DNA of 64,000 nt from Polaribacter vadi (GTDB taxonomy: Bacteria; Bacteroidota; Bacteroidia; Flavobacteriales; Flavobacteriaceae): assembly GCF_001761365.1 (NCBI RefSeq), contig NZ_CP017477.1:3710001-3774000 (forward strand), given 5' to 3'. Both the position numbers and the translations under genes were made by a program. Every line of letters begins with the position of its first letter. Positions within the stretch are counted from its first letter, which is position 1. A model generated the notes under the pieces. That model was not told the DNA's origin and searched no databases. It saw only the letters and a program-made list of their open reading frames with translations. Shown here piece after piece: positions 970 through 61,614 of the stretch.

Positions 970-1118
970 GAAGCTATTTCCTGCTTTCCACTATATCTTT
1001 TTAATTTCGTCATTGCGAATCAAGCTTTTTGCTTGATGAAGCAATCTGTTTGTCAAAAAAAAAAAGTGCTTTTTAAAAAGCAATTAAAAAGGATGTCGTT
1101 TCAATCAGGGCTAAACTT
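970..1118 (+). repeat. Dispersed GCTATTTCC repeat, copy 1, interrupted by another repeat
   Basis: The left end (GAAGCTATTTCCTGCTTTCC, 970-989) and right end (GGATGTCGTTTCAATCAGGG from 1091) match copies at 24385-24472 and 61537-61614. In those copies the two ends are separated by a short A/T hairpin. Here about 80 bp of extra sequence intervenes, including an element bounded by CGTCATTGCGA (1009-1019) and GAAGCAATCTG (1038-1048) around a hairpin with arms TCAAGC and GCTTGA. Confidence 0.75.
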
Positions 1119-21270: not shown

Positions 21271-21300
21271 TTGATAAAATAAAAATCTGTTGTAAATTTG
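21271..21300 (+). promoter_or_regulatory. SRP RNA promoter with both consensus elements
   Basis: TTG (21271-21273), a 19-nt spacer and TAAATTTG (21293-21300) match the Bacteroidetes consensus exactly. The predicted start coincides with the 5' end of the SRP RNA. Confidence 0.85.
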
Positions 21301-21303
21301 CAG

Positions 21304-21399
21304 TGGCAAGTCCTACACAACTAGCTCCCTTTGAATCCTCCAGGGTGGGAACACAGCAAAGGTATTAGGTTGTAGCAGTGTGATGTAGGTAGCTTGCCA
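21304..21399 (+). ncRNA. ffs: Small signal recognition particle RNA (4.5S type)
   Basis: The conserved SRP domain is visible: CCAGGGTGGGAACACAGCAA (21340-21359), in which GTG and CAC close a GGAA tetraloop beside the AGCA asymmetric loop that binds Ffh. The ends GGCAAG (21305-21310) and CTTGCC (21393-21398) pair, as do CCTACA and TGTAGG inside them, giving one long hairpin of about 96 nt. A T run follows directly as terminator. It works with Ffh and with FtsY, encoded at 33767, to target membrane proteins. Confidence 0.95.
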
Positions 21400-21632
21400 T
21401 TTTTTTTGTTCTGAACTTATTTCAGAACCTCTCCAAAAAATTTAATATTCTACTCAGCTTTTTGATATCTCTTTTGAGTTTCTTGAAATTATCTAATAAA
21501 AATCACTTTAATTATTTTTATAAGTGTAAGATAAAGGTAAGTTTATACAACATTGTTATATTTCTTATTTTTGTTTTACCATATTTGTACATCAATAATA
21601 AATCAATTTTAAAACCCAATAACCTTTAATAT
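21400..21632. other. Intergenic region between SRP RNA and SDR gene
   Basis: It contains the SRP T-run and AT-rich sequence. I see no gene. A TATTTTTG-like box near 21568-21576 is a weak candidate promoter for the SDR gene. Confidence 0.5.
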
Positions 21633-45753: not shown

Positions 45754-45796
45754 AAAAAAAGAAAGCCGAAGTTTTAAACTTCGGCTTTCTTTTTTT
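45754..45796. terminator. Bidirectional terminator between the AsmA-like and LysM genes
   Basis: Arms GAAAGCCGAAGTTT and AAACTTCGGCTTTC flanked by A7 and T7 runs, between convergent genes. Confidence 0.88.
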
Positions 45797-45811: not shown

Positions 45812-46186
45812 TTATAAATTAGGAATCACTAATTCTTGACCTGGATGAATTACATCTGGATTTTTTAAAATATTTCCATTTGCTTTAAAAATAGCGGTAT
45901 ATTTTGAAGGATTTCCATAATATTGTTTTGCTATTTTTCCTAAAGTTTCTCCTTTTTCTACTGTATGATATGCAAAAACTGAAGTATCTTCTACTTTAAT
46001 GTCTGCAACTAAATCAGTTGGGTTTTCACCACCAACTCTTTTTATTTCATCCCAAAGAAGGTTTTTTTCATATTGAGTTTTGGCAGTTCCATTAATTTTT
46101 AATTTACCACCTTCTTCTTTTACATCACCATTTTGGATGTTTAACTTTTCTCCTAAATCTAATACACTTTGATATTTTGCTTTCAT
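45812..46186 (-). CDS. LysM domain protein, BON-LysM type
   Basis: The 124-residue product lacks a signal peptide. Residues 1-70 resemble a BON-like alpha/beta domain (LNIQNGDVKEEGGKLKINGT). Residues about 74-121 form one LysM motif (YHTVEKGETLGKIAKQYYGN ... NPDVIHPGQELVIP). The order matches the E. coli Kbp/YgaU potassium-binding protein (149 residues), slightly shortened. It is the last gene of the minus-strand run and 23 nt after the DUF1573 gene, so it may be cotranscribed with it. Confidence 0.82.
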   Translation of the reverse strand: MKAKYQSVLDLGEKLNIQNGDVKEEGGKLKINGTAKTQYEKNLLWDEIKRVGGENPTDLVADIKVEDTSVFAYHTVEKGETLGKIAKQYYGNPSKYTAIFKANGNILKNPDVIHPGQELVIPNL

Positions 46187-46209: not shown

Positions 46210-46731
46210 TTATCTTACTGTTCTTTCTTCGTCAATATAATACCCCTGTTTTGTTAAATCTCCATCAACTGCTCCAGCTAATTTAGCTTTTCTTCTTTCT
46301 AAATAAATTTCCTCATAATCTTGCGTGTAATGAGGTGATGTAACTACGTTTAAATCGAATTTAACAGTGGTAAATACGTCTTTTTCTGTGTTAGCAAGAA
46401 TGGTTACAAAAAACTCTACATAACCAATATTTTTTGCACTATCATAATCTAAAACTATAAAGCCAAAATCGTCTTTACCAATAGAACCAGTTGGAAAATC
46501 TAACTCTATACAACCACAAGAAGCTTGTACATCGTAAATAATTAAAGGCTCATTACCTCTGTTATATATTTTAAATTCGGCTGTTAGTTCTGAGCCACGT
46601 AAAATAGGATAATAGTGTCTTTCAGGATCAATAATCTCCATTTTTGTTTTTCTTGCACTTTCTAAATCTGGCTTTCTAAAGCAAGAAGTTGTGATCAAAA
46701 CCAAGGAGAATAATATTAAAATTTTTTTCAT
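46210..46731 (-). CDS. DUF1573 lipoprotein
   Basis: The 173-residue product has a lipobox (LVLITTSC, Cys17). An Ig-like DUF1573 domain with the ASCGCIELDFPTG motif (near 69-81) follows, preceded by FKIYNRGNEPLIIYDVQ. These envelope proteins resemble the ASH/choice-of-anchor type, and their function is not settled. It lies 21 nt after the DUF4838 gene on the same strand, suggesting that it belongs to the same transcript. Confidence 0.85.
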   Translation of the reverse strand: MKKILILFSLVLITTSCFRKPDLESARKTKMEIIDPERHYYPILRGSELTAEFKIYNRGNEPLIIYDVQASCGCIELDFPTGSIGKDDFGFIVLDYDSAKNIGYVEFFVTILANTEKDVFTTVKFDLNVVTSPHYTQDYEEIYLERRKAKLAGAVDGDLTKQGYYIDEERTVR

Positions 46732-46752
46732 TTTTGTAAATTTAATTTTTTA

Positions 46753-48930
46753 TTAATTAAATATAATTTCATCACAAGCTAAAGCGTTTTTACCAGCAAT
46801 TATAGGTTTTATAACTTTAATTATAAATGAATCAGAAAGTTGTTTATTATCGAATTCCGAGGGTAAATCTATAGAAACTTCTTTAGTATCTAATATTGTT
46901 GTATCTGTTTTTAGTTTTATTCTCTTAATTATTTTAAAATCTGCATCCAATATTTCTATAGAACTTGGATAATAAATTTTGTGTTTAATATCTTGTAAAA
47001 AGGAAAACGTAATTTTTTTAGATTTAGAAATATCTTCTTTTTTAATTTTTAAAACTAAATTATCAATAGAACTAATATGCCAGTTTGTGTTGTAATCTTT
47101 AAGGCCAAAAGCACCATCATTTAAAATTTTGGTATTTTGGTAATCTTCATCTAATTTAGAGATTACCTCAAAATCCTTTTTGTAAAAATAATGTTTTCTT
47201 TTGTGATATTTAAAAATAGTTTTTCGCCAGCTATTGATATAGTCATCAATTTTATAGTTTCTTTCATTGTAGGTTTTAAGAGTAGCAGCTTTGCTGTAAG
47301 CAGATAGATGATCTAATAACACAGCAGCTTCATTTTTTACGATAATTTCGTTATCCTCATTTAAGGTTCCAAAACCATAAGAACCAAAACCATAATCTCG
47401 CATAATTTCTAATTTTAGAAATGTAAGACCTGTAGCTATTTTTAAATAATCTTTGTCAAATTTATTTTGTTGCGTATGTGTATCAAATTCATTATAAAAT
47501 TCAAAAAATACTTTTGGATCTAAATATTTTTTTACTGTTTTATTGATGCCACTATAAATGCTTAATTCTTTTTTATTGGTATAAAATGAATTTTCTATAA
47601 ATGTGTAATAATTAGTTAATACATCTGCTAGTTTTGTTGAAAATCGTGTATGGAAATAGTCATTTATTTCTTGATCTACATTGATGTTAGGGTTCCATAA
47701 AAGTTTTGCAAATAACGTTGCTTTTAACTCTTGAAAAGTGCTATAATCATATTCACTTCCATGTAAAAAAACGCCATTTACACCTAATTTATTGTAAAGT
47801 TTTAAGTTTTGTTGCGTAACTTTAATAATTGGATAAATATCAAAATAGTTATCAAAATTCACAGTATAATCCCAAATATAAACGTTGTTTACATATTTGC
47901 GCCATTTTACAATATCTTCTTGAAACTCTTTAAAATATTTAGAATTTTCGATGGCAATTCCTTTTTGAATATCAATAGTGCTATAAAAAATACCAGTATT
48001 ACTTTCTGCTTTAAATCTTGGAATATTTTTAACGGTGATATAAGCTGCTGTAAAAAAAGATAAATTTCTATTGTCTTTAGCAAGCTTATTTAGAAACGTA
48101 AAAACAGCTGGTGCTGCATCTGTATTGGTGTTTCCTGCAGCTTTACAGGTGCCACAAGTACAAACAATATCATTATCATTTGGTAAAATCATGTACTTGT
48201 TAAGAGCATGATCACTGTTATATGTAAGTTTTACTTTTTCATTTACATGTTTAAATAAACTATCACTTGTAAAACAATATTGGTCTTTAACTCTTTTGTT
48301 ACCAACTTTGGCATAAATAGATTCTGGAACATCAATATCTTTAACAACTTTATTTAAGTTATGTCCCCAAATACCCCATTCTAATTCTAAAAAATTGGTC
48401 TTATTCCAAGCTCTAAAATTTGAATCAAAGTTAGATGAATAATATGGTTCTCTATATTCAAAAATAGGAGATGAGCACTCACTAAATTGTTCAGGAATTT
48501 CTATAGTATCTGCAATTGAATATTCTTCAATATTTCCTTTTATAGCTTCGAAATTAAGATTTGTGTAACGTTTAAAAAAATCTTCGATAGCGTACTCTAA
48601 ATTTTGAGAGGTAGTTCCTTGAATTGTTATATTTTGATCTTTTTTATAGATACAAAAATCTTCTTTTTGAGTTGGGTTAACTCGTAAAAGAATGTAATTA
48701 TAGTTTTTATTTAAACTATTGCTTCTTTCAATATGTAAAGTTTCTCCTGTAACAATTTTAAAATTACTATTAAATTTATTGGCAGCATTCGTTACTAAAA
48801 TATCCGCACTTAATGGAATACTTATTTTTGGAGCTATTTTATTTTTTTTTGAGAACAAAGTCACTTTATTTTGAGCACAAGAAGTTAGGCTGAAAAAAAA
48901 TATAATTAGATAAATGTTTTTTTTAAACAT
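46753..48930 (-). CDS. DUF4838 lipoprotein, glycoside-hydrolase-like
   Basis: The 725-residue product has a lipobox (FFFSLTSC, Cys18). The N-terminal part (about 35-125) resembles the alpha/beta domain that precedes the catalytic barrel in alpha-glucuronidases and hexosaminidases. Residues about 155-450 contain the DUF4838 region with a CxCxxC cluster (Cys257, 259, 262) and LGVNGVFLHGSEYDYSTFQE. The C-terminal 120 residues look like a beta-sandwich (DGAFGLKDYNTNWHISS). DUF4838 is linked to glycoside hydrolases, but activity is undefined. It lies 21 nt after the TPR/barrel gene, where it could trim or modify an exported polysaccharide. Confidence 0.8.
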   Translation of the reverse strand: MFKKNIYLIIFFFSLTSCAQNKVTLFSKKNKIAPKISIPLSADILVTNAANKFNSNFKIVTGETLHIERSNSLNKNYNYILLRVNPTQKEDFCIYKKDQNITIQGTTSQNLEYAIEDFFKRYTNLNFEAIKGNIEEYSIADTIEIPEQFSECSSPIFEYREPYYSSNFDSNFRAWNKTNFLELEWGIWGHNLNKVVKDIDVPESIYAKVGNKRVKDQYCFTSDSLFKHVNEKVKLTYNSDHALNKYMILPNDNDIVCTCGTCKAAGNTNTDAAPAVFTFLNKLAKDNRNLSFFTAAYITVKNIPRFKAESNTGIFYSTIDIQKGIAIENSKYFKEFQEDIVKWRKYVNNVYIWDYTVNFDNYFDIYPIIKVTQQNLKLYNKLGVNGVFLHGSEYDYSTFQELKATLFAKLLWNPNINVDQEINDYFHTRFSTKLADVLTNYYTFIENSFYTNKKELSIYSGINKTVKKYLDPKVFFEFYNEFDTHTQQNKFDKDYLKIATGLTFLKLEIMRDYGFGSYGFGTLNEDNEIIVKNEAAVLLDHLSAYSKAATLKTYNERNYKIDDYINSWRKTIFKYHKRKHYFYKKDFEVISKLDEDYQNTKILNDGAFGLKDYNTNWHISSIDNLVLKIKKEDISKSKKITFSFLQDIKHKIYYPSSIEILDADFKIIKRIKLKTDTTILDTKEVSIDLPSEFDNKQLSDSFIIKVIKPIIAGKNALACDEIIFN

Positions 48931-48951
48931 AATGATAAGGGAATTATATGT

Positions 48952-51837
48952 TTAGAATTTTGTTACAATAGTTACAGATAAGTTGTATTGGTTTAGATAA
49001 AACAATGAAGTACTATCTGTTACTGGACTTTTAAAATTAATCCAAGTTCCATTTACAATTATTGCTGTTTTTGGAGATATATTATAACCATAACCTGCAC
49101 CAATTAATATATTTGAAAAATCTAAGAGCGCTGTTTCTCCTTCAGGTAATTGCGTATCAAAAGGTGCACTACCTCCAGAAACTATAAGAGTAACATAGTC
49201 TTTCCTGGCGTTTACATTTATTTTGGTTTGCGCCATTAAATTAAAATAGGTAAACTGGTCATCTCTTAATACAGACAATTTGGAGGTTAATAAAATATCT
49301 TCCCAGGTTTTTGTTCCTCCAACATTTAGAGTAATAAAGTTGATATCATTTTGCAATCTAGAAAAACGAATTCCTGCTTGAACTTCATAGCCATTACCTA
49401 TCCCTTTATAAGCATCTCCATATAAAATGAATTTAGGGAAAAATATATTTCCAAATAAAACACCAGCATTTGCATATAAAGTAGGAGAGAATATTCTTGA
49501 ATAGTTAACACCTCCTTGAACACCAACTCCAGATCTTCTTGCTGCATAATTTACATTTGCACCAAACGTGTTTTTCTCATCGTATTTATGGCTATAGCCT
49601 AAACTTGCAATAGATGTACTAAATGCAACAGAATCTGAACTTGCTTGCAAATAAGTTGCTGCTAGTTGGTTTTTAAGTTGTGCTGCTCTTAAAACCTCTA
49701 AAGTTAAACCCCATTGTTGTTTTTCGTAAGGATTATCAATTTCTCTAAATTTTTGATAATAATAAGCAGAATCATATTGTTGTAATAATTCGAAAACGAC
49801 CCCTTTTTTGTATAATAAAAAATTATCTTCAGGTGTTTTTTCTAATTTATTATTTATAAACTCTAAAGATTCATCATTTGGTTTTTGAATAATATGTAAA
49901 TTTACCATTCTCATTAATGATCCTCTATCAGCTGGATTTAAGGCAACAGCAGAATCATAGTTTACCAATGCTTCTTCAACTAAACCTTCTTCCTCTTGGT
50001 TTCTTGCTCTGTAGAATAAAACTTCAGCAAGTGCATTTTTAACATTTCTATCATAAACATATACTGTTCTTAGAGAATCTAAAACACCTTTAGCTTCATC
50101 ATATTGTTTATTTTGAGAATATAGATTTGCTAATTTTAATTTAAAGTTTTTATTATTTGGATAAAAAGTTAAAGCACTTTTTCCATAATTGATTCCTTTT
50201 TGATAATCTGGAATTGCAGATGATGCGTTTATGGCAATATCTAATAATCTTTTGTTATTATTTTCTCTTGTTAAACCATCCTCTACAAGTGGTAATACAG
50301 CTCTATATCTTTGTTCTCTCATTAAATAGGTAGCATACGCTTCTATTTGACTTACATATAAAGTTGGGTATCTTTGGCTTAATGGATAATTTTGTTCTAA
50401 TGATCTAGTTATTTCTAAAGCATCATCAAATAATTCCATTTGTTGATAAAGGGTAGATTTTTTTTCTAAATAATCTGGATTATCTGGATCTAAGCCTATT
50501 AATTTGTCGATTTGATCTGTAGCTTCATCATATCTTTCTTGTAAAAGATAAATACCGAAAATTTGACTTTCAGATTCTTCTGTAAAATCTGGGAAGTTTA
50601 CTAATTCGTTAAAAATCTCTAAAGCTTCTCCATATTGTTTGTTGATTACTAAATCTTTTGCTCTATTGTAAATTACCAAATTATAGTCTGATGTAATATC
50701 AGTATCGTTAGGGAATTTTTCATGAAGTTCAATTACTTCTTTTTCAAAACGCTCTTTATCTTTTATAGGTCTGTAAAGTTCTTTTAATTGAACTAAAAGT
50801 TTTTTATTATTTGGACTTCTTTTAATGTTTTTCTTCAAGAAATACTCAGCATCAACATCATAACCTTTTCCTAATGCGTTTTTAATAACATAGGCTGTAG
50901 ATTCTGAATTTCCATTCATTTCTGCCAATTTCTTATTGATCTCATACGTATCATTATACTCATTGAAACTTGCAGATTGTTGCATTAAGTAAGGTAATGT
51001 TTTAGAGTGAAGCTCAGGAAACTTATCCTTACTAACATTAGGATCTGTTTGTATAAATACAATAGCTTCTTCATGTCTACCTAATTGCTCTAATAAACCA
51101 ACTTTCTTTTCAATTAATTGTCTGTCAGAAGGTAATTCGATAAGAGATCTATTTGTATATTGTAGAGCAACTTCTGGATTTCCTTTTAAAATTTCATTTC
51201 GAATAAGTCCTAAATAAGCATCTTTGTTGGATGGGTTGTTATCGATAATCGTTTTATAAATTACGTTAGCATCGTCGTAATTTTTATTTTTTAAAGCATC
51301 ATTTCCATCACCAATCATAATGTAATTATACCTACTTTCTATTTCAGTATCATTAGGATAAATTTGGTAGATTCTTTTTAACGCTCTTTCAGCTTCTTCA
51401 AAATTCCCCATTTCTTTGTAAATTTCTATTTTACGTAGATGCCAGCCTCTACTATATGGAGTAATTTCTAATAATTCATTTACAAAACAAATAGCATCAG
51501 AATATCTTTTTGTTGTTTGCTCTATAGTTACTAAATATTGCAATACATCAATATCTTTTCTTCTTTTGTCGTAAACTTGTTTTAATACATATCTTGCAGT
51601 ATCATATTTACCAAGTTGAAGATTTGCTTTTCCTAAAAGAACTTTTAAATCTAAGTCGTTTTTAGATATTTGCAGTCCTCTCCAGCTCATTTTTGCGGCT
51701 TTCGTAAAGTTTTGTTCTGCAATATCTTTTTTAGCTTCTTCGAAATATAAATCGGAAGAATCAAATTTTTGAGAATAAATATTTAATTGTGATAGCAAGA
51801 TCACAATAAAAATTAAAATTGATTTATTTATTTTCAT
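48952..51837 (-). CDS. TPR protein with C-terminal YaiO-type outer-membrane beta-barrel
   Basis: The 961-residue product has a signal peptide (SILIFIVILLSQLNIYSQ). TPR helices (about 25-720) follow, repeated every 34 residues with pattern A..Y..... (FTKAAKMSWRGLQISKNDLD, YDTARYVLKQVYDKRRKDID and so on). The C-terminal 215 residues are alternating-strand barrel sequence ending in aromatic Phe (TIVTKF), as in the YaiO family. PgaA of poly-GlcNAc export likewise joins TPRs to a barrel. It lies 17 nt after the synthase gene. Probable outer-membrane export pore plus scaffold (inference from architecture). Confidence 0.85.
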   Translation of the reverse strand: MKINKSILIFIVILLSQLNIYSQKFDSSDLYFEEAKKDIAEQNFTKAAKMSWRGLQISKNDLDLKVLLGKANLQLGKYDTARYVLKQVYDKRRKDIDVLQYLVTIEQTTKRYSDAICFVNELLEITPYSRGWHLRKIEIYKEMGNFEEAERALKRIYQIYPNDTEIESRYNYIMIGDGNDALKNKNYDDANVIYKTIIDNNPSNKDAYLGLIRNEILKGNPEVALQYTNRSLIELPSDRQLIEKKVGLLEQLGRHEEAIVFIQTDPNVSKDKFPELHSKTLPYLMQQSASFNEYNDTYEINKKLAEMNGNSESTAYVIKNALGKGYDVDAEYFLKKNIKRSPNNKKLLVQLKELYRPIKDKERFEKEVIELHEKFPNDTDITSDYNLVIYNRAKDLVINKQYGEALEIFNELVNFPDFTEESESQIFGIYLLQERYDEATDQIDKLIGLDPDNPDYLEKKSTLYQQMELFDDALEITRSLEQNYPLSQRYPTLYVSQIEAYATYLMREQRYRAVLPLVEDGLTRENNNKRLLDIAINASSAIPDYQKGINYGKSALTFYPNNKNFKLKLANLYSQNKQYDEAKGVLDSLRTVYVYDRNVKNALAEVLFYRARNQEEEGLVEEALVNYDSAVALNPADRGSLMRMVNLHIIQKPNDESLEFINNKLEKTPEDNFLLYKKGVVFELLQQYDSAYYYQKFREIDNPYEKQQWGLTLEVLRAAQLKNQLAATYLQASSDSVAFSTSIASLGYSHKYDEKNTFGANVNYAARRSGVGVQGGVNYSRIFSPTLYANAGVLFGNIFFPKFILYGDAYKGIGNGYEVQAGIRFSRLQNDINFITLNVGGTKTWEDILLTSKLSVLRDDQFTYFNLMAQTKINVNARKDYVTLIVSGGSAPFDTQLPEGETALLDFSNILIGAGYGYNISPKTAIIVNGTWINFKSPVTDSTSLFYLNQYNLSVTIVTKF

Positions 51838-51854
51838 AACTAATAATCGGTAAT

Positions 51855-53420
51855 TTATGTTTTTATAGGCTCAAAATCTGAATCTGAGCTTTTATCTTTT
51901 TTTAATCTTTCAAAAATACTAGGTTTCTTTTCATTAGTGCCTCCAGAGTTATTGTCTTGATTATTATTACTGTCATTGTTGCTGTCAGATTTTTTCTTCT
52001 TTTCATCTTCATTATCAAATCCTTTTCTAGTCATAGTACCCCAAGCTAATTCTTGAGAAGTAACGTAACTGAAATATCCTTTTAAAGAGAAGAACATAAT
52101 CATAGGGTGATATAAAATTGGTTCAATAAATGCAGTTAAGAATAACGTAAGAACTTCTTTAGTTGTATTATAATATTTAAACGTCATTTGATCCCAAATA
52201 ATTACAATTGATGAAATCATAATAGCAAAAGTATAGGAGTACAAAAGGATTAATGGCGCAAAATTCCAGTTTACATATCCGTAGAAAAGTAAAAAAACTG
52301 AAAATAGAATACCAAAAGCTTCAATTATTGGCGCTAAAAACTCAAAAATAAAAATATATGGAAATGTAATTAACCCCAATCTTTTATAACTTGGATTAAA
52401 TAATATTTTTCTATGTTCACTAAACATTTGAAATAATCCACTGGCCCATCTTGTACGTTGTCTTCCTAAAATTTGGATGTTTGGTGGTCCTTCTGTCCAA
52501 CAACAAGAAAGAGGAATGTATCCTATTTTATAATCAAGTCTGTTGTTCATCATATGAGCCGCCATTCTTGTCATCATATCCATATCTTCTGCATGAGAAT
52601 CTGCTCCATAACCACCAGCTTTAATGGCTATATCTTTATCAAACATACCTAAACCTCCAGATACATTAGGGACAGAATTTATTAATTCCCAACCCATTTT
52701 TCCTAAAAGATAAGATCTAATATATTCTAATTCTTGAAAACGAGGAATTAACGCTTTTGGAGGTCTTACTCTTGTAATAACTCCTTCTTCAATTTCACAG
52801 TTATTAGACATTCTTAAGGTGGCACCCACTGCAATTACAGTAACTTTAGAACTTAAAATTGGTTTAATCATTTTAGTAAGGGTGTTCCTTGCTAAAATAC
52901 AATCTACATCTGTATTTAAATAATAAGGAAATACGGATGCATTAAGACCTGCATTAAAAGCATCTGCTTTTGTACCTCCGTTTTCTTTATCGATAATTGT
53001 TAAAATCTCGTATTTAGGATTTTGAGATTTAAATGTTCTTTTGTAAGGTTTTGTTTTAATTTTTTCTACGTAAGCGAAAGGTGCTTCCACTAGATCAAAT
53101 TCTTCTATAAGTAAATCTAATGTTTTGTCTTTACTACCATCATTCACAATAATAACCTCAAAAAGTGGATAGTTTAATGTTAATAAAGATTTTACATTTA
53201 CAATAATTGTTTTTTCTTCATTATAAGCTGGCGCAATTACAGAAATTCCTGGAGCAAGAGGTGAGCCTAATAATTCTTCGTCATCAATATCAGTATTATA
53301 ACTTTTATATCTATTTATTGCTATAAAAGAAAATATAGCTAAAACTATGTAACTTAAAATTAGAGAAGTTGCATAGAAGAATATAAAATACTCATAAATT
53401 TTTACAAAAATTTCAAACAT
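51855..53420 (-). CDS. Processive membrane family 2 glycosyltransferase (polysaccharide synthase)
   Basis: The 521-residue product has all the marks of a processive synthase. An N-terminal membrane helix (12-34) is followed by APAYNEE (63-69), NDGS (93-96), the DxD DVD (171-173), the catalytic base region HAED (276-279) and QRTRW (321-325). Three to four C-terminal membrane helices follow (about 345-455). The last 60 residues are a low-complexity Asn/Ser/Asp/Lys tail. PgaC, HasA and cellulose synthases share this motif set. It touches the HEAT gene with no gap and is the likely inner-membrane synthase of the locus. The sugar is unknown. Confidence 0.9.
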   Translation of the reverse strand: MFEIFVKIYEYFIFFYATSLILSYIVLAIFSFIAINRYKSYNTDIDDEELLGSPLAPGISVIAPAYNEEKTIIVNVKSLLTLNYPLFEVIIVNDGSKDKTLDLLIEEFDLVEAPFAYVEKIKTKPYKRTFKSQNPKYEILTIIDKENGGTKADAFNAGLNASVFPYYLNTDVDCILARNTLTKMIKPILSSKVTVIAVGATLRMSNNCEIEEGVITRVRPPKALIPRFQELEYIRSYLLGKMGWELINSVPNVSGGLGMFDKDIAIKAGGYGADSHAEDMDMMTRMAAHMMNNRLDYKIGYIPLSCCWTEGPPNIQILGRQRTRWASGLFQMFSEHRKILFNPSYKRLGLITFPYIFIFEFLAPIIEAFGILFSVFLLFYGYVNWNFAPLILLYSYTFAIMISSIVIIWDQMTFKYYNTTKEVLTLFLTAFIEPILYHPMIMFFSLKGYFSYVTSQELAWGTMTRKGFDNEDEKKKKSDSNNDSNNNQDNNSGGTNEKKPSIFERLKKDKSSDSDFEPIKT

Positions 53421-54548
53421 CTATTTGTATTTAATTAACGGAGTTTCAATATGCTGTAAAATGGTTAAATCAAAACCTTTCAAAGAATTTTTCATGTTTT
53501 GAAAAGCGATTTTTCCTTCGTAACTATAATTTAAGATAGCTTCAGCAATAATTTTTTTGGTATCAGTATTATTTGTTTCTTTAAAAATTTCCTGTAAAAA
53601 ATTTAATGATTTTCCAGAATTAAATTTTCTAATAGTTTTTACAATCGCAACTTGGCATATTTCAGGTTCAGTATAATATCTATCAATTAATTCTTGTTCT
53701 GTCTCAGATATATTTAGTTCACCTAATGTTAAAATAGCTTCTGCTCTAACTAACTCATTATCGTCTTCTAATTTTTCAATTAAAATTTCGTTAATACCTC
53801 TTTGCTTAAAGAACCCAACCATTTTAATCAAAAAAACTACTAAAGATTGGTTTTTAGAATAGTTAATCCATTTTCCTAACCCTTCTAAATTACCTCTTTC
53901 TTTTTGAAGTTCCAAATACTGCATCAATTCAATTTCATCCCATTTACTTAAATCTCGATCAAATTCATCGAAAAATCGGTAGGGATCATTGGTACTTAAG
54001 GCAAGATAAGAATTTCTTGCTTCACTTCGAATCATTTTATTCTTACTGTAGGCATATCTTAAAACTTTTGAATCAAATTTATTTAAATCTAAGACAAAAG
54101 CTTCTTGGAAAGCGTCAATTTTTTCACTGTTAGAGCGTGAATCGAATTTTCTTTCTAAATGTTCTACAATACCTAAAGCACTAATAATTAGTGGGTATTT
54201 TTCAGATTCTTTATGTTCGTTTTTAAAATCGACTAAAATACCAACAGCAATATCTAAAGATTCTCTGTTAACTTCATCTACAATATCTTCAAATTTTGTG
54301 AAAATTTCCTGTTCAGAATAATTTTTATCAGTAAAAAGAATATCTACAAATAATTTAACGATTTCAGGCACACTATTTTCTAATGTTTTCTGTAATCTAT
54401 TATGTCTTCTTCTAATTGTATAAATCGTTATCATAAGAGCTAACGTTGCAACTACAAAAACCATTGTTAGTACAATGGTAATTTGTATAATTAGAGGAAA
54501 CGTTTTTATCTTATAGATAAAAGAAAGGAACCACTCAACGAAATTCAT
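53421..54548 (-). CDS. Membrane-anchored HEAT-repeat protein
   Basis: The 375-residue product has one N-terminal membrane helix (about 20-45, IIQITIVLTMVFVVATLALM). Helical repeats fill the rest, the clearest near 258-340 (DDNELVRAEAILTLGELNIS, EPEICQVAIVKTIRKFNSG), typical of HEAT/ARM solenoids. The orientation is probably periplasm-out at the N-terminus with a cytoplasmic solenoid, judged by the RRRHNR stretch after the helix. Its stop codon directly abuts the synthase ATG. It may be a regulatory or scaffold partner of the synthase, which is inference. Confidence 0.8.
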   Translation of the reverse strand: MNFVEWFLSFIYKIKTFPLIIQITIVLTMVFVVATLALMITIYTIRRRHNRLQKTLENSVPEIVKLFVDILFTDKNYSEQEIFTKFEDIVDEVNRESLDIAVGILVDFKNEHKESEKYPLIISALGIVEHLERKFDSRSNSEKIDAFQEAFVLDLNKFDSKVLRYAYSKNKMIRSEARNSYLALSTNDPYRFFDEFDRDLSKWDEIELMQYLELQKERGNLEGLGKWINYSKNQSLVVFLIKMVGFFKQRGINEILIEKLEDDNELVRAEAILTLGELNISETEQELIDRYYTEPEICQVAIVKTIRKFNSGKSLNFLQEIFKETNNTDTKKIIAEAILNYSYEGKIAFQNMKNSLKGFDLTILQHIETPLIKYK

Positions 54549-54616
54549 TTACTTTATGTTGTTTTAGTTTAATCGTTTAGTGGGGGATTATATGTGTTAT
54601 AGATTTTAAAAGTAAT

Positions 54617-54651
54617 CAAATATATAATTAATTAAATCATTATTCTTTCAA
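54617..54651 (-). promoter_or_regulatory. Probable promoter of the HEAT-synthase-TPR operon
   Basis: The minus strand has TTG (54649-54651), a 24-nt spacer and TATATTTG (54617-54624). The spacer is 1 nt longer than the usual 17-23. Transcription would start near 54610, about 60 nt before the first gene. Confidence 0.5.
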
Positions 54652-61536: not shown

Positions 61537-61614
61537 GGAGCTATTTCCAGCTTTTCACTATATCTTTTTGCTGAAAAAGCAAAAAGGATGTCGTTTCAAT
61601 CTGGGCTAAACTTG
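61537..61614 (+). repeat. Dispersed GCTATTTCC repeat, copy 3
   Basis: The most compact copy: GGAGCTATTTCCAGCTTTTC at the left, a hairpin with arms CTTTTTGCT and AGCAAAAAG in the middle, and GGATGTCGTTTCAATCTGGG then GCTAAACTTG at the right. It gives the uninterrupted reference for the split copy at 970-1118. Confidence 0.85.

What the first reader, a model, noticed from the sequence alone, without database searches (positions are those of the whole stretch)
46753..54548. Candidate undescribed synthase-dependent polysaccharide secretion system (HEAT, GT2, TPR-barrel, DUF4838)
Four genes in one direction are spaced 0, 17 and 21 nt apart. They encode a membrane HEAT solenoid, a processive GT2 with D, DxD, ED and QRTRW motifs, a secreted TPR protein with a C-terminal YaiO-type barrel, and a DUF4838 glycosidase-like lipoprotein. 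By role the last three match PgaC, PgaA and PgaB, but the HEAT protein and DUF4838 have no counterpart in PGA, alginate or cellulose systems. A single promoter stands upstream. The GT2 tail is a low-complexity Asn/Ser/Asp/Lys extension.
Basis: partly seen in the sequence, partly recalled or inferred. Interest (0 to 1): 0.75.

Follow-up and report, generated by a model that had tools for sequence, protein, structure and literature searches.

The report
HEAT-partnered polysaccharide synthesis and export operon
Five adjacent genes in a marine Polaribacter, gained or lost as one block, likely build, trim and export a sugar polymer, and their synthase is paired with a membrane HEAT-repeat protein, a pairing that recurs across its phylum and would control the synthase in a genome where the usual second-messenger (c-di-GMP) genes are missing.

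Summary
In detail: four genes, gaps 0, 17 and 21 nt, motifs as described. All five genes occur in the same order in 22 of 23 related loci. They behave as one block: window-type GT2 and DUF4838 occur in the same 15 of 96 genomes of the genus, and in 6 of 10 examined genomes without it lpdA is followed directly by the LysM gene. Across 296 genomes of the phylum, 74 of 76 GT2 places counted have a homologous HEAT gene directly upstream; 41 of 76 also have a stand-alone receiver before HEAT. The window clade lacks that receiver and has DUF4838, DUF1573 and a long TPR exporter; its GT2s form one clade. The genome has no GGDEF, PilZ or PgaB-type hydrolase. Best reading: a c-di-GMP-independent, synthase-dependent polysaccharide system, possibly of a GlcNAc-containing polymer. 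A 2023 paper reports a GT2 and a DUF4838 ('GH163') gene of another Polaribacter induced 8.8- and 18.5-fold with algae. The polymer and the HEAT role are untested.

The parts
53421..54548 (-). Membrane HEAT-repeat protein, 375 aa: one predicted TM helix (about 23-41), then a basic stretch (RRRHNRLQK) and a predicted cytoplasmic HEAT solenoid; proposed control or scaffold subunit of the synthase
   Evidence: a homologue lies directly upstream of 74 of 76 GT2 places counted
51855..53420 (-). GT2 polysaccharide synthase with the motifs of processive enzymes, 521 aa; D94, D171/D173, E278-D279, QRTRW 321-325; hydrophobic peaks at about 17-35, 348-379 and 390-408; low-complexity tail in Polaribacter
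48952..51837 (-). Predicted outer-membrane exporter, 961 aa: signal helix, about 19 TPRs (25-718), 14-stranded YaiO barrel (723-960)
   Evidence: Pfam TPR_19 and YaiO, TIGR04390 33.3 bits against cut-off 32, model pLDDT 82.3, pTM 0.45, structural matches FadL, OmpG and CymA (14 strands each, recalled)
46753..48930 (-). DUF4838 (GH163-type by the label of PMC9870897) lipoprotein, 725 aa: N-terminal alpha/beta domain, TIM barrel, helical domain, C-terminal discoidin-like beta-sandwich; D252 is in 23 of 23 aligned sequences, D354 and E393 in 21 of 23
   Evidence: PF16126, model pLDDT 90.5, matches to GH115, GH84, GH67 and GH20 folds, residues
46210..46731 (-).
   Evidence: same place in 22 of 23 loci
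54617..54624 (-). TATATTTG, candidate Bacteroidetes-type -7 promoter element (consensus recalled)
54581..54588 (-). ATCCCCCA, a leader element (TCCCYCA-like) conserved upstream of HEAT in most Polaribacter-type relatives aligned
45812..46186 (-). LysM protein gene; NOT part of the unit: it still lies beside lpdA in 6 of 10 examined genomes that lack the block
45754..45796 (-). Strong hairpin with a T run after the LysM gene, a likely intrinsic terminator (z-score -8.2)

Best explanation
The five genes at 46210-54548 are likely a synthase-dependent polysaccharide synthesis and export system whose GT2 synthase is predicted to be controlled by a membrane HEAT-repeat partner instead of c-di-GMP. 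Steps. (1) SHOWN: the five genes are one conserved, co-directional unit; its GT2 and DUF4838 come and go together within the genus; and the HEAT gene is the standing neighbour of this GT2 family in the Bacteroidota sampled. (2) INFERRED: HEAT and GT2 form an inner-membrane complex; the HEAT solenoid sits in the cytoplasm beside the catalytic domain and sets its activity. In many relatives the signal would come from a kinase and a stand-alone receiver encoded next door; in the window clade that gene is not in the neighbourhood, so input is transcriptional or comes from elsewhere. (3) INFERRED from motifs and family: the GT2 polymerises a beta-linked glycan and threads it through its own membrane part. 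(4) INFERRED from the model: the TPR-barrel protein guides the chain through the periplasm and out through a 14-stranded barrel. (5) INFERRED from fold and from the published GH163 label: the DUF4838 lipoprotein cuts or trims the chain, most simply at beta-N-acetylglucosaminyl bonds, which would make the polymer GlcNAc-containing. (6) GUESS: the DUF1573 lipoprotein is a periplasmic adaptor.
For: Order HEAT-GT2-TPR/YaiO-DUF4838-DUF1573 in 22 of 23 loci, with different flanking genes in Polaribacter and in Flavobacterium. Window-type GT2 (77% identity or more) and DUF4838 occur in the same 15 of 96 genomes of the genus, the window's own included. Block absence: in 6 of 10 examined genomes without it lpdA is followed directly by LysM. 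HEAT homologue directly upstream of 74 of 76 GT2 places; the profile from the window-type alignment alone found 56 of these (55 in the larger set), and neither profile hit any other ORF of the survey loci in a set of 1,320 ORFs. Receiver directly before HEAT in 41 of 76, nearby in 53 of 76; three of three tested are PF00072 only; four of four tested neighbouring large genes have HisKA, HATPase, REC and Hpt. No GGDEF, PilZ or GHL13 match in the window's genome; the same searches ring in 8, 5 and 1 of 14 control genomes, E. coli each time. GT2 motifs kept in 91-98 of 99 sequences per position. DUF4838 model has the fold of glycoside hydrolases. Published: GT2 MED152_03905 up 8.8-fold and DUF4838 MED152_03915 'GH163' up 18.5-fold in Polaribacter dokdonensis with Micromonas (PMC9870897, section 10 read); one tag between them would fit the TPR gene.
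Against: No polymer, mutant or binding data exist. The GT2 scores far below the PNAG-synthase cut-off (112.7 against 422.3 bits), so the sugar is open. In 2 of 76 places no HEAT gene was found directly upstream (L079, L098), and one more (L099) matches only at 1.9e-14; the profile that reached 74 was iterated on the same set. A 77th place (L100) was left out because its GT2 lies in two ORFs below my 250-bit line; no HEAT ORF matched there. HEAT repeats are common and might serve assembly rather than control. No receiver is found beside the block in the window clade, so the phosphorelay idea cannot apply there in simple form. The barrel model has 14 strands, fewer than known exporters (16-18, recalled), and pTM is only 0.45. 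The best DUF4838 match (6q63) superposes loosely (rmsd 10.0). The lipobox Cys is missing in a few DUF4838 members (L005, L013). That MED152 carries this very operon was not checked by sequence, and the paper's authors read its genes as CAZymes in a catabolic setting.
Confidence: 0.68

Rival explanations
1. The genes are a diverged PNAG (Pga) system: GT2 = PgaC, TPR-barrel = PgaA, DUF4838 = the hydrolase half of PgaB, HEAT = PgaD.
For: PgaC/IcaA is the best NCBIfam match of the GT2 (2e-32) and PgaA is among the matches of the TPR protein (5.9e-12). GH163 is named an endo-beta-N-acetylglucosaminidase in PMC9870897.
Against: Both scores lie far below the curated cut-offs (112.7 of 422.3; 44.6 of 366.65). 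No deacetylase domain in the operon, no GHL13 match in the genome, no GGDEF or PilZ match. The barrel model has 14 strands.
Confidence: 0.15
2. The block is a catabolic or scavenging locus (the setting in which the 2023 paper reports the two induced genes): DUF4838 digests algal or bacterial N-glycans and the rest supports uptake or modification.
For: DUF4838/GH163 enzymes are mostly known from glycan breakdown (recalled). In PMC9870897 the pair is reported beside GlcNAc-catabolism genes.
Against: No SusC/SusD or transporter match in the five proteins. The partner of DUF4838 is a GT2 with processive motifs and a TPR-barrel of exporter type, in one order in 22 of 23 loci. Of the 74 HEAT-GT2 pairs of the survey, 65 have no DUF4838 gene within six genes.
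Confidence: 0.1
3. The HEAT protein is an assembly or targeting scaffold for the GT2 with no regulatory role, and the nearby receivers act on something else.
For: A one-TM solenoid with no enzymatic domain fits a scaffold. Some relatives have HEAT proteins of 637-931 aa. The window clade does without a receiver beside the block.
Against: The three short receivers tested have no DNA-binding part, and in 41 of 76 places the receiver gene lies directly before HEAT. In at least five of seven f17 genomes a GGDEF match lies within 3 kb of the GT2 instead (only L092 checked by Pfam).
Confidence: 0.3

Closest known systems
PNAG (PgaABCD / IcaADBC) synthase-dependent system
   Same: Membrane GT2 whose best NCBIfam match is PgaC, TPR protein ending in an outer-membrane barrel (PgaA plan), lipoprotein with a glycan-cleaving fold (PgaB role)
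   Different: HEAT partner in the place of PgaD; DUF4838 in place of PgaB, no deacetylase in the operon; 14-strand YaiO barrel model; extra DUF1573; no GGDEF or PilZ match in the genome
Bacterial cellulose synthase (Bcs)
   Same: GT2 with processive motifs, long TPR chain plus barrel (BcsC-like plan; BcsC has about 19 TPRs, recalled), a periplasmic hydrolase (BcsZ role)
   Different: No BcsB match among the five proteins; GT2 scores 17.9 bits against the CelA cut-off of 699.1; no PilZ match
DUF4838 / GH163 endo-beta-N-acetylglucosaminidases
   Same: PF16126 domain, glycoside-hydrolase architecture
   Different: Here encoded beside a synthase and exporter, and predicted to be a lipoprotein without an acidic surface-export signal after the lipid Cys (rule recalled)
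Receiver-HEAT-GT2-YaiO loci of other Bacteroidota (found here, unnamed)
   Same: HEAT directly upstream of the same GT2 family, a YaiO/TPR gene nearby in 57 of 76 places (loose criterion)
   Different: Many have a receiver (53 of 76 nearby) or, in f17, a GGDEF gene; the YaiO protein is mostly about 400-500 aa; a PF00884 enzyme is fused or near in 28 of 76 places; DUF4838 is near in only 9 of 76

Membership tests
PNAG (Pga) system | GT2 reaches the PgaC/IcaA equivalog cut-off (TIGR03937) | tested here: not met
   112.7 bits against 422.3
PNAG (Pga) system | Exporter reaches the PgaA equivalog cut-off (TIGR03939) | tested here: not met
   44.6 bits against 366.65
PNAG (Pga) system | PgaB deacetylase plus GHL13 hydrolase | tested here: not met
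   no deacetylase domain in the operon proteins; no GHL13 match in the genome, E. coli control rings; deacetylases elsewhere in the genome were not searched
PNAG (Pga) system | c-di-GMP control through PgaC/PgaD | tested here: not met
   no PgaD match in the HEAT protein; no GGDEF match in the genome
Bacterial cellulose synthase | BcsA-type GT2 with PilZ domain | tested here: not met
   17.9 bits against 699.1; no PilZ match in the genome
Processive GT2 synthases | D, DxD, ED and QxxRW motifs with flanking TM helices | tested here: met
   kept in 91 to 98 of 99 sequences per position; processivity itself not testable here
YaiO outer-membrane barrel proteins | PF19413 / TIGR04390 above cut-off | tested here: met
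   45.2 against 23.9; 33.3 against 32
DUF4838 / GH163 | PF16126 domain above cut-off | tested here: met
   157.1 against 26.6 bits
DUF4838 / GH163 | endo-beta-N-acetylglucosaminidase activity with identified catalytic acids | not testable with these tools
   candidate acids D252, D354, E393 are conserved; the activity label comes from PMC9870897 for a protein of another Polaribacter
Synthase-dependent polysaccharide secretion (general kind) | inner-membrane synthase plus periplasmic TPR chain plus outer-membrane barrel plus periplasmic hydrolase in one operon | tested here: met
   by sequence and model only

The most novel reading that the evidence does not exclude
Bacteroidota have their own class of polysaccharide synthase, an obligate HEAT-GT2 pair in which the HEAT solenoid is a general receiving subunit whose input is swapped in evolution: a phosphorelay ending in a stand-alone receiver, a diguanylate cyclase, or none, with exchangeable outer parts. 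The window's block is the branch that dropped its input gene and took a GH163-type chain-cutting lipoprotein, a DUF1573 adaptor and a 19-TPR, 14-strand exporter.
Probability: 0.45. Interest if true: 0.75.

Novelty: new variant of a known kind. Interest (0 to 1): 0.62.

Why it matters
Synthase-dependent polysaccharides are usually thought of as switched on by c-di-GMP (recalled). Many Bacteroidota have no GGDEF match (139 of 296 sampled), the window's genome among them, and how they control such synthases is open. A HEAT protein beside nearly every GT2 of this family, with a stand-alone receiver before it in many genomes, gives one testable answer. It would also recast a DUF4838/GH163 gene reported among catabolic CAZymes as part of a biosynthetic operon that is induced next to algae, which bears on how marine Polaribacter attach or build matrix.

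Tried and rejected
Considered and dropped: LysM as a sixth member (it stays beside lpdA in 6 of 10 examined genomes without the block). The scan for sigma-70 hexamers was uninformative (59 found, 68 expected). Sequence search of solved structures with DUF4838 gave only a weak match to 6q63 (0.0018); the fold comparison was the useful one. PgaA and BcsC do not appear among the 50 rows, which does not exclude them. A leader pattern was not found elsewhere in the genome in near-identical form (that pattern did not match the window's own copy either, so it says little). Sulfatase counts were inflated by TPR cross-matches and were replaced. RR counts by cluster (52 of 76) were replaced by a profile (53 of 76). 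The HEAT protein search listed 120 of 255 proteins, those named being Polaribacter or unplaced, and added little. Paper searches, ten in all, gave no description of the system in the listings seen. Passages were read in PMC12419801 and PMC10434189 (unrelated) and in PMC9870897, whose section 10 was read. The library lacks most subscription papers and all bioRxiv preprints, so absence there is weak evidence.
Full report
WHAT IS THERE. The window lies in a 3.81 Mb single-contig genome; Polaribacter is taken from the named relatives. Four minus-strand ORFs match the finding exactly, with gaps of 0, 17 and 21 nt. Pfam confirms HEAT_2, GT2, TPR plus YaiO barrel, and DUF4838. A fifth ORF, a DUF1573 lipoprotein at 46210-46731, follows 21 nt after DUF4838. 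A LysM gene and a strong hairpin with a T run come next.

CONSERVATION. A scan of the species-genome collection with six peptide patterns of the GT2 gave 23 loci. In 22 of them all five genes stand in the same order (the exception, L024, is a distant GT2 at 27% identity). They include Polaribacter, the Flavobacterium columnare group, Lishizhenia, a Cryomorphaceae MAG and other Bacteroidota MAGs. Flanking genes differ: lpdA and argS in Polaribacter; methionine and sulfate-assimilation genes (my reading of the sequences) in Flavobacterium. In some loci a gene is split into two ORFs in my listing; I did not examine these.

A BLOCK. In 96 genomes of the genus, the window's included, 27 have a GT2 match at 1e-100. 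Window-type GT2 (77% identity or more) is in 15 of 96 and DUF4838 in 15 of 96, and these are the same 15 genomes; in one of them (G351) the GT2 reading frame holds stops. The other GT2 matches there (37-44% identity) were not examined, except G029 (L038), which is of the receiver type. I then looked at ten of the 81 genomes without the block: in six, lpdA is followed directly by the LysM gene, with 137-189 nt between them; in the other four, other genes follow lpdA. So the unit of gain or loss is most simply the five genes, and LysM is a resident neighbour. HEAT, TPR and DUF1573 were not searched across the 96. G+C of the block is 27.8% against 29.0% for the window.

THE WIDER FAMILY. A GT2 profile was run over 296 Bacteroidota genomes: 70 have a match at 1e-70 or better, 78 places in all. 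Leaving out the window's own, I fetched 76 stretches that hold the other 77 places. One (L100) was dropped from the counts because its GT2 lies in two ORFs below 250 bits; no HEAT ORF matched there. In the 76 counted, the gene directly upstream on the same strand is a HEAT homologue in 74, mostly with a short overlap or a gap of a few bases and one predicted TM helix. The profile from the window-type alignment alone found 56; the rest came by iteration on the same set. As a control, neither profile hit any other ORF of the survey loci in a set of 1,320 neighbourhood ORFs. A stand-alone receiver lies directly before HEAT in 41 of 76 places and nearby in 53 of 76; in L030-L032 it follows DUF4838 instead. 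Three tested are PF00072 only. Four neighbouring large genes tested are hybrid kinases with HisKA, HATPase, REC and Hpt. In family f17, whose counted loci show no receiver, GGDEF coordinates (a capped list) lie within about 3 kb of the GT2 in at least 5 of 7 genomes; in L092 the gene is GAF-GGDEF. Across the sample, GGDEF occurs in 23 of 70 genomes with this GT2 and in 134 of 226 without it; this is confounded by phylogeny. A PF00884 enzyme is fused or near in 28 of 76 places, DUF4838 in 9 of 76 (8 loci, one with two GT2 places). Among genes of the YaiO cluster, lengths of 937-1013 aa occur only in L025, L026 and L027; L027 has a receiver and no DUF1573.

NO RECEIVER IN THE WINDOW CLADE. The receiver profile finds no receiver in the 64 kb window or in 24 five-gene loci (L002-L023, L025, L026), except one in L014 about 4 kb beyond the block; in L011, L014 and L016 under 600 bases are held upstream of HEAT. 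This does not exclude a receiver elsewhere in the genome.

TREE. In a quick GT2 tree of 89 rows, the 15 five-gene rows given form one clade (SH-aLRT 100). All 21 rows with DUF4838 fall in one 24-row clade (SH-aLRT 100) together with L028, L029 and L033, which lack it; the six DUF4838 rows outside the five-gene clade do not form a clade of their own. A simple history is one gain of DUF4838 with later losses, then loss of the receiver gene and gain of DUF1573 and a long TPR chain; this is inferred.

REGULATION. The window's genome has no GGDEF, PilZ or GHL13 match, and the same searches ring in 8, 5 and 1 of 14 control genomes, E. coli each time. So c-di-GMP control as in Pga, Bcs or Alg systems is unlikely here. 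A TAnnTTTG box 64-78 nt upstream of HEAT in the window and 13 of 14 relatives, followed by a TCCCYCA-like leader, suggests one promoter for the block, though the motif is common in the window.

PUBLISHED DATA. In PMC9870897 (section 10 read) Polaribacter dokdonensis MED152 grown with Micromonas commoda shows MED152_03905 (GT2) up 8.8-fold and MED152_03915 (DUF4838, GH163, 'endo-beta-N-acetylglucosaminidase') up 18.5-fold. If tags step by five, one gene lies between, as here. The authors list them as enriched CAZymes outside PULs and, in that section, do not link them. I did not verify by sequence that these are the same genes.

JUDGEMENT. It works like a synthase-dependent secretion system. 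It fails the tested features of the Pga and Bcs families, so I do not file it there. The best-supported new element is the HEAT-GT2 pairing; its regulatory role is a proposal. The GlcNAc-containing polymer is a guess from the hydrolase family.

Noticed in passing
54581-54588 (-), 5' leader of the HEAT gene: A TCCCYCA-like element with conserved surroundings stands between the promoter box and the HEAT start in most of the 14 Polaribacter-type sequences aligned; a leader-level control site is possible.
   Followed up: partly
L034, L038, L046, L049, L053-L055, L057-L063 and others: In 28 of 76 places a PF00884-type (sulfatase / alkaline-phosphatase superfamily) domain is fused to the C-terminus of the GT2 or encoded nearby, as if the polymer were modified with a charged group.
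   Followed up: partly
L092, L094, L096, L097, L100 (family f17): A GGDEF match lies within 3 kb of the GT2 where no receiver is found, which suggests that the input module can be exchanged; only L092 was checked by Pfam.
   Followed up: partly
46753-48930 (-), residues 257-262: DUF4838 members share a conserved CxCxxC motif just after the invariant D252-N253, of unknown role.
   Followed up: no
L017: A MAG labelled Limnohabitans (Pseudomonadota) carries a Flavobacterium-like copy of the block; probably a binning error.
   Followed up: no
45812-46186 (-) and L113-L118: In six genomes without the block a 137-189 nt spacer with a hairpin-and-T-run sequence separates lpdA from LysM; in the window LysM starts only 23 nt after DUF1573, so it may have come under the block's promoter.
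   Followed up: partly
973-1116 (-), 61540-61611 (-), 21297-21403 (+): Rfam matches: two Flavo-1 RNAs and one Bacteroidales small SRP RNA.
   Followed up: no
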